Shown: positions 25,063-38,781 of the stretch, in pieces
How positions within the stretch are numbered: the first letter of the stretch is position 1
How the letters are laid out: every line of letters begins with the position of its first letter
Origin: Coleofasciculus sp. LEGE 07092
GTDB lineage: Bacteria > Cyanobacteriota > Cyanobacteriia > Cyanobacteriales > Coleofasciculaceae
DNA length: 64,000 nt
Assembly (NCBI RefSeq): GCF_015207375.1
Contig: NZ_JADEWY010000004.1
Coordinates: 24,104 to 88,103 of the forward strand
Direction: 5' to 3'
Notes under the pieces: generated by a model
The model's input: only the letters and a program-made list of their open reading frames with translations
Database searches by the model: none
What the model was told of the DNA's origin: nothing
Program-made: the position numbers and the translations under genes

Positions 25063-25109
25063 TGCCAGGAGGCGGATTTGAACCGCCGACACGAGGATTT
25101 TCAGTCCTC
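25063..25109 (-). repeat. Distal attachment site: displaced 3' part of tRNA-Phe
   Basis: These 47 bases match the tRNA-Phe gene from the 3' end through the anticodon arm (anticodon GAA) and then diverge. Three mismatches to 38735-38781 fall in the T-loop and the adjoining T-stem base; both versions still form a T-arm with GGCGG/CCGCC pairing. The gene lacks a D-arm and 5' acceptor strand, so it is not functional. Confidence 0.92.
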
Positions 25110-25139
25110 GCTAGCCTTAATACAATAACACAAGTATAC

Positions 25140-25916
25140 ATGACAGAAAAAAAATGTGAGGGCAGCAAGCAGGCAGTAGTACTCTGGCAGACAGGACAAG
25201 GAGAAAAGAGGTTTCTTAGCCGAAATCCTCCTATTTCCTGGGTTTGCAGCCCTGGTCCCCCGGAGGGGTGTGGAGTTGCTGGAAGTTGGATAGTAGACTC
25301 CGAACCTATTGGAGTCAATGGCTGTGGAGCGTGGGGGTACTGGAATGGTAGTTATGAGTATGAATATTCAAGCTCCTCTAGGCGAGTAACAACAGTTTCA
25401 CTGGAAGGATTCACTTCTGATAATCCTTTTATTTTTCAAGGAACTATAAAATCTTCTTGTGATGGGCGCACAATGGCGGAGAGCTTGCGAAAAAAACCTT
25501 CAAATCTTCAAGTCATCCATGCCAAAATGGGCGCAAAAAGCACTAAAGTCTCTGGAAATTCAAGAGATGATTTGAGTATAGAAGTTGTTCAGTCTGAGTC
25601 GCTTTATTTTAGCTACATTTATTCAAACTGCAAAAAAAGAAATTTAGGACAAGCCATTAGAAGCTCAAGAAATAGTTTCGACCTTATTCGTAAAGCAGTT
25701 TTCACTGCTGATAGTTCTCAATTACTAGAAAAGGGATATTTCAAAATTTGGGATGCAAGAGGGCAAGTTTATGAAGAAAGAGTAGAAACTGAATGTCCGA
25801 CCGTAAAAGTAATTTGTGATAAGGCTTGCCCTTCCAGTACCTGCGAATGTAGGCACGGCAACCGAGTGTGCTGCTACAATTCACAGGGATATGTTATTCA
25901 CAGTTTTTTAATTTAA
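25140..25916 (+). CDS. Island operon gene 1: Cys-rich C-terminus, unknown function
   Basis: I chose ATG 25140, 30 bases inside the element; the longer frame reads through the tRNA fragment and is an artefact. The 258-residue product has a Gly/Trp-rich N-terminal part (PPISWVCSPGPPEGCG), a middle with serine-rich stretches, and a cysteine-dense C-terminus (CPSSTCECRHGNRVCCY) with nine cysteines in its last 45 residues that looks disulphide- or metal-linked. No signal peptide is visible. It is the first gene of the eight-gene operon and is followed after 3 bp by gene 2. I recall similar Cys-rich tails in unnamed cyanobacterial proteins but cannot assign a family. Confidence 0.75.
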   Translation: MTEKKCEGSKQAVVLWQTGQGEKRFLSRNPPISWVCSPGPPEGCGVAGSWIVDSEPIGVNGCGAWGYWNGSYEYEYSSSSRRVTTVSLEGFTSDNPFIFQGTIKSSCDGRTMAESLRKKPSNLQVIHAKMGAKSTKVSGNSRDDLSIEVVQSESLYFSYIYSNCKKRNLGQAIRSSRNSFDLIRKAVFTADSSQLLEKGYFKIWDARGQVYEERVETECPTVKVICDKACPSSTCECRHGNRVCCYNSQGYVIHSFLI

Positions 25917-25919
25917 ATT

Positions 25920-26261
25920 ATGTCCCTAACCATACAACAAAGATTCGGCGTGAACAGTTCCCTGGTAAATCAAGAGTTGCGAATTATCCTAAGTGATTTA
26001 ACCGCAGTAGGCTTGGAGGGGTCTAGCCCTACTGCTGATCAGATACTTGACGCAATCCTTCAACTCAGTCTGCTCAATCAACCACAAAATGCAGTAGACG
26101 ATCCAACTATTGGTATTGTTGTCGCTGAAAGCTTACTAAATAAGGCTTTTGTGCAGCGCGGGACAACAGAGGCAGGCAAACAGATTGAATATCAAAAAAC
26201 AGTTAGCAGTTATGTGCTTGACACCATAACGGATTACGATCCAGACAATTTAGTTTCTTAA
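25920..26261 (+). CDS. Island operon gene 2: small protein, unknown function
   Basis: A 113-residue acidic protein with no signal peptide or membrane helix. It opens MSLTIQQRFGVNSSL and is otherwise helical in character, with QLSLLNQPQNAVDDPTIGIV in the middle and DYDPDNLVS at the end. Three bases separate it from gene 1 and four from gene 3, so its translation is probably coupled to the long coiled-coil protein. It might be a chaperone or assembly partner for that protein, but nothing in its sequence proves this. Confidence 0.72.
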   Translation: MSLTIQQRFGVNSSLVNQELRIILSDLTAVGLEGSSPTADQILDAILQLSLLNQPQNAVDDPTIGIVVAESLLNKAFVQRGTTEAGKQIEYQKTVSSYVLDTITDYDPDNLVS

Positions 26262-37475: not shown

Positions 37476-37510
37476 CACATCCACTGACAGATCCACTCAA
37501 TTAAACAAAA

Positions 37511-38596
37511 ATGACCCGAAACCCCAAGGGGTCTGTAGTCGTTGAAACTCTTAAAGGACGGCTCAGACTTCGCTTACCCAAATTTTGCCCAAAGCGATAC
37601 CTTTCACTTGGATTAGCCGATACTCCACGCAACCGAAAAATTGCTTCTCTCAAGGCAGCTCAAATTGAAGCTGACATCCTTTATGAGCGCTTTGACCCTA
37701 CCTTGGAACGATACAGATCGCCTTACCAGCGCCCGACCGAAAAAATGCCGCTGCTAACAGTTTGGGACGCTTATGTAGATGCTCGGAAATCGGAGGTCAG
37801 CATCACGACCCTGAATATCGATTTTCGGAGGGTTCGCCAGCGGATACAAAGTTTTCCAGTAGACCTGTCCGAATCCGACCAGTTCAAGAACTGGCTGGGC
37901 AAGCACTACTCACCGGGGGGCAGTAGACGGGTGCTAGTACAGCTTCGAGCTGCTTGTAATTGGGCGCTACAGGAAGGGTTGATACAAAGCAACCCTTTCT
38001 CTGATCTCCCCCGTAAGGGCAAACAGTTAAAGCCAAAACCCCAGCCTTTTACCAGAGCGGAACGAGACAAAATTATTAGCGGCTTTGAAACCCATCAGCA
38101 CTACAGTTACTATGCCCCGTTTGTAAAATTCCTCTTCTGGACTGGAGCGAGAACCAGTGAGGCGATAGGTCTGAGGTGGAAAGACCTTGATCAAGAATTT
38201 CAATTCATCACTTTCTCTGAAGCTCTAGTACAGGGTCAGAGGAAAGATACCAAAACTCACCAGTCTAGACGTTTTCCAGTGAATCAAGCGCTTGGAGAGT
38301 TGCTGCTGACTATTCGACCAGAAAGTTTTAGTCCAGACGCGCTCGTGTTTTTGTCTAAGACCGAGCTGGCTATCGACTCCCATAATTTTCTAAACCGAGC
38401 GTGGCGATCAGTGCTTGGAAGCTTTCCCACTATCCAGTACCGAAAGCAATATGCGACCCGACATACTTTCATTACTCTGTGCCTAGAAGAAGGGGTTCCT
38501 GTGGCACTGATTGCCCAGTGGGTGGGCAATTCCCCCCGTACAATTTGGACTTCTTACGCTGGAATCGTCAGCGCTCTACCCGTCCCAGAGCCGTGA
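37511..38596 (+). CDS. Tyrosine recombinase (integrase) of the island
   Basis: A 361-residue phage-type integrase. N-terminal AP2-like and SAM-like arm/core-binding domains (residues about 1-175) precede the catalytic domain. Catalytic residues: Arg214 in TGARTSEA, Arg317 followed by His in ATRHTFIT, and the nucleophile Tyr349 in WTSYAG. In the second box the first conserved His is a Tyr (YATRH), a known variation. It would cut and join at the tRNA-Phe attachment site 139 bp downstream. It begins 35 bp after the replication gene and is probably co-transcribed with it. Confidence 0.93.
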   Translation: MTRNPKGSVVVETLKGRLRLRLPKFCPKRYLSLGLADTPRNRKIASLKAAQIEADILYERFDPTLERYRSPYQRPTEKMPLLTVWDAYVDARKSEVSITTLNIDFRRVRQRIQSFPVDLSESDQFKNWLGKHYSPGGSRRVLVQLRAACNWALQEGLIQSNPFSDLPRKGKQLKPKPQPFTRAERDKIISGFETHQHYSYYAPFVKFLFWTGARTSEAIGLRWKDLDQEFQFITFSEALVQGQRKDTKTHQSRRFPVNQALGELLLTIRPESFSPDALVFLSKTELAIDSHNFLNRAWRSVLGSFPTIQYRKQYATRHTFITLCLEEGVPVALIAQWVGNSPRTIWTSYAGIVSALPVPEP

Positions 38597-38734
38597 CCAC
38601 TAGTACAAAAGATATCCTTTTTATATCCTTTTTGACCAAAAAGCCACCAAAACCACTTGGACTTAGGGAGTGGTACACAAATACTAGAACCCGCCACGAT
38701 CAAGTTGCGTAGCGGGTTCCAAATGCTAAGATTA

Positions 38735-38781
38735 TGCCAGGAGGCGGGCTCGAACCGCCGACACGAGGATTTTCAGTCCTC
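38735..38781 (-). repeat. Proximal attachment site within tRNA-Phe
   Basis: The 3' 47 bases of the tRNA gene form the direct repeat partner of 25063-25109. The longest identical block is 30 bp covering the anticodon arm and variable region, and it is the likely crossover segment. By the usual geometry this copy's 3' end derives from the element. Confidence 0.9.

What the first reader, a model, noticed from the sequence alone, without database searches (positions are those of the whole stretch)
25063..38781. A 13.7-kb tRNA-Phe-integrated element with its own replication protein and an uncharacterised structural-type operon
The sequence shows a 47-bp direct repeat made from tRNA-Phe, a tyrosine recombinase beside the intact tRNA, a zinc-finger/TOPRIM/P-loop replication protein, an XRE regulator with a divergent small ORF, and an eight-gene cargo operon. 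It carries no capsid, terminase, portal, relaxase or secretion gene that I recognise. From knowledge of phage satellites and tRNA-integrated replicons, integrase plus primase-helicase plus regulator is the minimal core of a satellite or integrative plasmid. The cargo is mostly new to me. This is the best candidate in the window for an undescribed system.
Basis: partly seen in the sequence, partly recalled or inferred. Interest (0 to 1): 0.88.

Follow-up and report, generated by a model that had tools for sequence, protein, structure and literature searches.

The report
Cyanobacterial tRNA element with particle operon
This 13.7-kb stretch is a mobile DNA element inserted into a tRNA gene of a cyanobacterium, one of a family also found on circular plasmids in other cyanobacteria, and the operon the family shares matches no known gene family and likely builds a virus-like particle.

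Summary
A 48-bp tRNA-Phe repeat (45/48) bounds 13.7 kb with a tyrosine recombinase, a DUF3987 primase-helicase, an XRE regulator and an eight-gene operon; three relatives have the site empty. Of 74 distinct loci, ten are bounded by tRNA-derived repeats, one by another repeat, two look like circular contigs and two are complete plasmids; 59 have no shown boundary. Replication genes differ. Some relatives add endolysin- or tail-fibre-type genes. No capsid, terminase, portal or relaxase match was found in the window. g4 has no significant Pfam, PHROG, IMG/VR or phage-record match, and two predicted folds match nothing clearly. Best reading: an integrative plasmid-like replicon whose shared operon likely encodes a phage-like particle. 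The particle is untested; a helper-dependent satellite or a tail-like device remain possible.

The parts
25062..25109 (-). left attachment repeat: displaced 3' end of tRNA-Phe with host-type T-arm (TTCAAATCC)
   Evidence: 45/48 identical to 38734-38781; same T-arm letters as G004/L136 at all three differing positions
25140..25916 (+). g1, protein with Cys-rich C-terminus (ORF listed from 25059; start at 25140 inferred)
   Evidence: 10-member family, window included, after iterative search; Cys-rich C-termini printed
25920..26261 (+). g2, 113 aa, family member
   Evidence: 21 ORFs, window included, in iterative search
26266..28764 (+). g3, 832 aa, coiled-coil/repeat protein with conserved C-terminal domain (hallmark)
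   Evidence: C-terminus found in 32 of 243 genomes of the order, own included; tandem 87-bp repeats 26776-27317
28767..29555 (+). g4, 262 aa (hallmark)
   Evidence: 27 of 386 genomes of the phylum sample, own included; no significant Pfam or PHROG (30 members) match; AF2 pLDDT 81.6 without clear PDB match
29666..30154 (+). g5, 162 aa, at the place of C6/C9 in relatives
   Evidence: g5-like proteins in L034, L092/L117, L091, L095
30157..30801 (+). g6, 214 aa
   Evidence: two homologs in a database of 5.8 billion proteins, word-limited search; weak hit in L116
30814..31170 (+). g7, one hydrophobic (TM-like) segment plus charged C-terminus; holin-like by shape only
   Evidence: hydropathy 2.1; no significant family hit
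31154..31537 (+). FHA-domain protein
   Evidence: PF00498 3.3e-9; TIR-FHA protein in a similar place in L034
31845..32354 (-). DUF4352 protein
   Evidence: PF11611 2.8e-6; homologs in L085, L093 and in the same place in L217
32511..32789 (-). XRE-type repressor-like regulator
   Evidence: HTH_31 6.1e-12; C5 family called in 24 of 74 loci
33588..37475 (+). replication protein: CxxC, primase/TOPRIM-type region, DUF3987 P-loop domain
   Evidence: PF13148 5.3e-36, phrog_239 4.3e-17; Walker A at residue 467
37511..38596 (+). tyrosine recombinase (integrase)
   Evidence: PF00589, phrog_1 1.3e-40; 46% identical to L099, 33% to L217 integrase
38734..38781 (-). right attachment repeat, 3' part of the intact tRNA-Phe, element-type T-arm (TTCGAGCCC)
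38734..38808 (-). intact tRNA-Phe(gaa)
   Evidence: ARAGORN

Best explanation
The window holds a 13.7-kb element integrated in tRNA-Phe, one member of a family found in many cyanobacteria on tRNA-bounded islands and circular plasmids, and its shared operon likely encodes a phage-like particle that would carry the element from cell to cell. Shown: integration site with both repeats, empty sites in relatives, open integrase, primase-helicase and regulator genes, and the conserved operon on other islands and on circular molecules. Inferred: the XRE protein would repress; on induction the integrase would excise a circle; the primase-helicase would replicate it; g2-g1-g3-g4 and the following genes would assemble inside the cell, g3 acting as a long coiled-coil, tape- or ejection-like part joined to g4; variable downstream proteins would bind the recipient; and, where present, the TM protein and endolysin would lyse the host. 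Whether DNA is packaged in its own shell or in a helper's is not known.
For: Integration. Same operon in other bounded elements: L081 Lys 45/45, L105 Thr 61/61, L132 Glu 24/24, L078 Ser 26/27, L095 Ser 18/18; L099 Lys 43/43, L104 Leu 27/27, L077 Phe 92/92; L217 Phe 43/43 with window-like layout; L106 25/25 non-tRNA. Circular molecules: L119 exact 141-bp end overlap, L117 161/171, plasmids pHT582-2 (15.6 kb, ParA/ParB, integrase) and pHT582-1. Module conservation: g4 directly behind g3 in 50 of 67 g3 loci; g4 is part of 515-526-aa proteins with a long N-terminal extension in L211-L213. Phage-type genes in relatives: tail fibre phrog_24210 2.7e-13 in L117; Phage tail repeat PF12789 1.7e-10 and phrog_18185 2.9e-7 in L114; endolysin phrog_894 1e-24 in L132; phrog_3000 6.6e-38 and endolysin phrog_33083 6.3e-11 for C17 of L108; VanY 2.4e-6 and lectin-type Laminin_G_3 6.1e-14 in L078; one Phage_lysozyme 2e-35 in the 146-protein set.
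Against: No particle has been seen. No packaging ATPase, terminase or capsid was recognised in the window; for relatives the two bulk scans show only 25 of 129 PHROG and 25 of 61 Pfam families, so absence there is not shown. The window copy has no recognised endolysin or tail fibre, and C16 or C17 is called in only 12 of 74 loci. g4 gives nothing in a pattern scan of IMG/VR or in 50,697 phage records, and g3 nothing in the phage records; virus catalogues should hold a common virus unless their markers miss it. Neither predicted fold (g4, C6) clearly matches a known protein. 59 of 74 loci have no shown boundary or circle; five extended windows with the small ~194-aa recombinase (G117 twice, G116, G179, G062) had no convincing flanking repeat, so many copies may be fixed. 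Some copies are broken: in L078 the integrase is in three ORF pieces and g4 is a 67-aa piece; in L109 g3 is in three pieces.
Confidence: 0.5

Rival explanations
1. A phage satellite: it excises and replicates itself, but its DNA is packaged in a helper phage's capsid; the operon redirects or replaces the helper's adsorption parts.
For: Size of 10-18 kb, integrase plus regulator plus primase and no packaging gene recognised in the window fit satellites; the PICMI satellite search model uses the same DUF3987 primase family, PF13148 (PMC10803314, passages seen).
Against: One relative is a plasmid with ParA/ParB and an integrase and some carry endolysin-type genes, unusual for satellites by general knowledge. 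No TerL_ATPase (PF03354) match in the window's own genome, a draft of 296 contigs (one terminase family only).
Confidence: 0.22
2. An integrative plasmid carrying a non-viral operon: a tail-like weapon, or a surface adhesion or defence device kept because it benefits the host or the plasmid.
For: Circular plasmids with partition genes; loci without shown boundaries are the majority, 59 of 74; FHA and TIR-FHA proteins at the operon end are signalling or defence types; a MACPF protein lies on pHT582-2.
Against: No sheath, tube or baseplate match in the window; a recombinase lies in the fetched stretch in 49 of 74 loci; endolysin- and tail-fibre-type genes in some relatives.
Confidence: 0.23
3. 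A decayed prophage remnant with fast-evolving leftover genes.
For: No capsid or terminase recognised in the window; many ORFs without relatives; some relatives have broken genes (L078, L109).
Against: The window's integrase, rep, g3 and g4 frames are open; gene order is kept in the own order and in genomes of other orders of the class and on plasmid pHT582-1.
Confidence: 0.05

Closest known systems
PICMI phage satellites (Vibrionaceae; PMC10803314, passages seen)
   Same: Integrase, small regulator, DUF3987-type primase, no capsid gene recognised, site-specific integration
   Different: Here the site is a tRNA gene, the regulator is XRE and not AlpA, and there is a large conserved operon
Tycheposons (Prochlorococcus and others; seen through passages of PMC10872708, original paper not read)
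   Same: tRNA-bordered element with tyrosine recombinase in cyanobacteria
   Different: Those are described as cargo-carrying, 4-200 kb, with nutrient functions; here a conserved operon of unknown function and 10-18 kb
Phage-plasmids, such as the phage-like Microcystis plasmid P1 of NIES-298 (PMC12510456, passages seen)
   Same: Cyanobacterial plasmid mixing plasmid and phage-type genes with a tyrosine recombinase
   Different: P1 is said to have BLAST hits to Microcystis phages; g3 and g4 relatives here match no phage record
Plasmids pHT582-2 and pHT582-1 of Nostocales HT-58-2 (CP019638.1, CP019637.1)
   Same: Carry g3, g4 and a tyrosine recombinase; pHT582-1 also g2, g1-like and C2 genes
   Different: Circular plasmids; ParA/ParB; other replication genes; module genes annotated as hypothetical proteins

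Membership tests
tRNA-integrated tyrosine-recombinase element | Flanking repeats from the tRNA 3' end, integrase beside it, empty site elsewhere | tested here: met
   repeat 45/48; L136, L141 and L149 have the left-flank gene and tRNA-Phe collinear without the element
tRNA-integrated tyrosine-recombinase element | Excised circular form of this very element | not testable with these tools
   No reads; circular relatives L119, L117 and two plasmids are indirect
PICMI satellite | DUF3987-type primase | tested here: met
   PF13148 5.3e-36
PICMI satellite | AlpA regulator and integration next to fis | tested here: not met
   tRNA-Phe site; the small regulator is XRE-type, no AlpA among the 25 of 28 families listed
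Tycheposon | tRNA border plus tyrosine recombinase | tested here: met
Tycheposon | Metabolic or nutrient cargo | tested here: not met
   No such Pfam family among the window element's ORFs scanned
Tailed phage (Caudoviricetes) prophage or capsid-forming PICI | HK97-type capsid, portal, terminase | tested here: not met
   No Pfam or PHROG hit for any of the 15 window ORFs scanned; sequence profiles only
Conjugative or mobilizable element (ICE/IME) | Relaxase or type IV secretion genes | tested here: not met
   None; pHT582-1 and pHT582-2 typed non-mobilizable by PLSDB
Tailocin or contractile injection system | Sheath, tube, baseplate genes | tested here: not met
   No such hit in the window; an unrecognised tube is not excluded
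Phage-plasmid | Plasmid replication or partition with virion genes on one circular molecule | tested here: inconclusive
   ParA/ParB beside g3/g4 on pHT582-2; that g3/g4 are virion proteins is not shown

The most novel reading that the evidence does not exclude
A new lineage of small (10-18 kb) temperate DNA viruses of cyanobacteria, living as tRNA-integrated proviruses or plasmids, whose virion proteins (g2, g1, g3, g4, C6/g5, C2/g6) are unrelated to every known capsid or tail lineage and were therefore missed by virus catalogues.
Probability: 0.3. Interest if true: 0.88.

Novelty: new variant of a known kind. Interest (0 to 1): 0.64.

Why it matters
A conserved operon that is found in cyanobacteria on islands and plasmids, with lysis- and adhesion-type genes near it in some members, but with hallmark genes that match no known family, is either a new virus-like particle or a new kind of transfer or warfare device. 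The 74 loci, including named strains and two complete plasmids, make the question directly testable. The hallmark profiles (g3, g4) would also let virus and plasmid catalogues recognise a group they now miss.

Full report
Observation. The window was re-read with tools. One tRNA, Phe(gaa), lies at 38734-38808 on the minus strand. Its 3' 48 nt recur at 25062-25109 with three differences. Between them are a tyrosine recombinase beside the tRNA, a 1295-aa replication protein with DUF3987, an XRE regulator on the other strand and eight plus-strand genes. ORFs after the operon on the minus strand include a DUF4352 protein. No Pfam or PHROG match to capsid, portal, terminase, relaxase or secretion-machine genes was found among the 15 window ORFs scanned, apart from a sub-threshold Yop-YscD_cpl hit on the FHA domain.

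Integration. The 129-aa gene on the left flank was used to find the site in relatives: 33 of 37 genomes, own included, have the gene; of the 20 loci scanned, one of them the window's own, 3 have tRNA-Phe in the fetched stretch (L136, L141, L149), so this neighbourhood is kept only in a minority. In G004/L136 the left-flank match and the tRNA match follow each other collinearly (subject 59-421 and 533-661), which is the empty site; L141 and L149 give shorter but also collinear matches. The three bases that differ between the repeats are informative: the left copy reads TTCAAATCC, as in G004, while the tRNA beside the integrase reads TTCGAGCCC, seen in none of the other 15 tRNA-Phe sequences printed. 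At two of the three positions all 15 agree with the left copy; at the third they are mixed, and 7 of 15 have the G of the integrase-side copy. The simplest reading is that the element brought its own 3' end and displaced the host's to the left.

The operon is a family. g6 finds only two proteins and one further genome among 117 relatives. The g3 C-terminus, however, finds 32 of 243 genomes of the order, own included. Reading these loci showed a recurrent order: XRE - C8 - small recombinase (opposite strand) - g2 or C10 - g1 - g3 - g4 - C6 - C12/C21 - C2, seldom complete in one locus. A scan of one genome per species (84,980 species) with a five-sequence g4 alignment confirmed 22 loci of 92 pattern stretches, all 22 with cyanobacterial titles. 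A g4 profile finds 27 of 386 genomes of the phylum sample, own included, some with two or three matches. After removing five duplicates, 74 distinct loci were compared: 68 with g4, 67 with g3, g4 directly behind g3 on the same strand in 50 of 67 and on the other strand in 5, C2 in 47, C6 in 39, and a recombinase in the fetched stretch in 49. These loci were chosen because they hold g3 or g4, so the counts say how the module is built and not how common it is. In L211-L213 g4 is the C-terminal half of a 515-526-aa protein; this suggests that g4 works together with the added part, whose likeness to g3 I judged by eye only.

Mobility of the family. Flanking-repeat searches give ten tRNA-bounded elements: window Phe 45/48 (13.7 kb), L217 Phe 43/43 (12.6 kb), L077 Phe 92/92 (17.2 kb), L081 Lys 45/45 (9.9 kb), L099 Lys 43/43 (17.9 kb), L105 Thr 61/61 (13.6 kb), L132 Glu 24/24 (13.8 kb), L104 Leu 27/27 (15.1 kb), L078 Ser 26/27 (15.5 kb; integrase and g4 broken), L095 Ser 18/18 (16.0 kb, the weakest, but with an integrase beside the repeat). 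L106 has a 25/25 non-tRNA repeat beside a recombinase. L119 has an exact 141-bp end overlap in a contig named k141, L117 a 161/171 overlap, so both look circular (14.6 and 10.5 kb). Two complete plasmids of Nostocales HT-58-2 carry the hallmark pair, one of 15.6 kb with ParA, ParB and an integrase. The other 59 of 74 loci have no shown boundary; many lie on short contigs or in windows of 20 kb. L217 repeats the window's layout: repeat, g2, g1, g3, g4, further genes, DUF4352 on the minus strand, a small minus-strand ORF, replication protein, integrase and tRNA-Phe, except that g2 and g1 change places. Its replication protein gives no match to the window's at E 1e-4; among the 14 loci compared only L106 does (5.5e-6), and its integrase is 33% identical. 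Conversely the window's replication domain is 56-57% identical in G005 and G014, where no g3 was found. So replication and integration parts seem to be exchanged around the operon.

What the operon may do. g4 has no significant Pfam (window copy) or PHROG match (30 members). Genes near the operon in some relatives are telling: tail-fibre type (L117, L114), lectin-type (L078), endolysin or cell-wall hydrolase types (L132, L078, C17; C16 only weakly Tlde1-like, E 0.041), and small proteins with one hydrophobic segment. C16 or C17 is called in 12 of 74 loci. I infer assembly in the cytoplasm and release by lysis, hence a phage-like particle. Absence of signal peptides was judged by eye and not computed. 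Folds did not help: g4 (pLDDT 81.6) and C6 (83.4) match nothing clearly. Only these two proteins were modelled, and C6 is not present in the window copy.

Against this reading: no packaging motor or capsid recognised in the window; bulk scans of 146 proteins from 13 elements listed mostly helicases, primases, integrases and some endolysins, but only 25 of 129 PHROG and 25 of 61 Pfam families are shown; no hit of g4 in IMG/VR or of g4 and g3 in INPHARED; no endolysin recognised in the window copy. Five extended windows with the small recombinase had no convincing flanking repeat. One terminase family (PF03354) was sought in the window's draft genome and not found, which weakly disfavours a resident helper prophage.

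Comparison. The core resembles PICMI satellites in its DUF3987 primase, and tycheposons in tRNA site and recombinase, but fails other defining features (see membership rows; papers PMC10803314, PMC10872708 and PMC12510456 were read as passages only). I therefore call it a new variant of integrative mobile elements, with a new virus lineage as the boldest reading not excluded.

Noticed in passing
L154 (pHT582-2, CP019638.1) 9827-14899: A 1690-aa protein with a MACPF (perforin) domain match, 2.2e-6, on the plasmid that also holds g3/g4 and ParA/ParB.
   Followed up: no
window 26776-27317: Five 87-bp-spaced (29-aa) tandem repeat copies inside g3, a likely length-variable coiled-coil region.
   Followed up: no
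L034 7264-8118: TIR-FHA protein behind the closest relative of the window operon; the window has an FHA-only protein at the operon end.
   Followed up: partly
L194 with L176 (G026:C1 890608 and 915355): tRNA-Phe with a second copy of its 3' end about 24.7 kb away, perhaps another tRNA-Phe element; the g3 search found nothing in this genome's order sample listing for G026.
   Followed up: no
L211-L213: g4 is the C-terminal half of 515-526-aa proteins, in three genomes.
   Followed up: partly
L220 and L221 (G381:C1 near 1.07 and 6.17 Mb): Two copies of the module with identical g3 C-terminus in one chromosome, each with a ~46-bp flanking repeat (40/46 and 41/46) at 9.7 kb spacing that is not tRNA-derived.
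   Followed up: no
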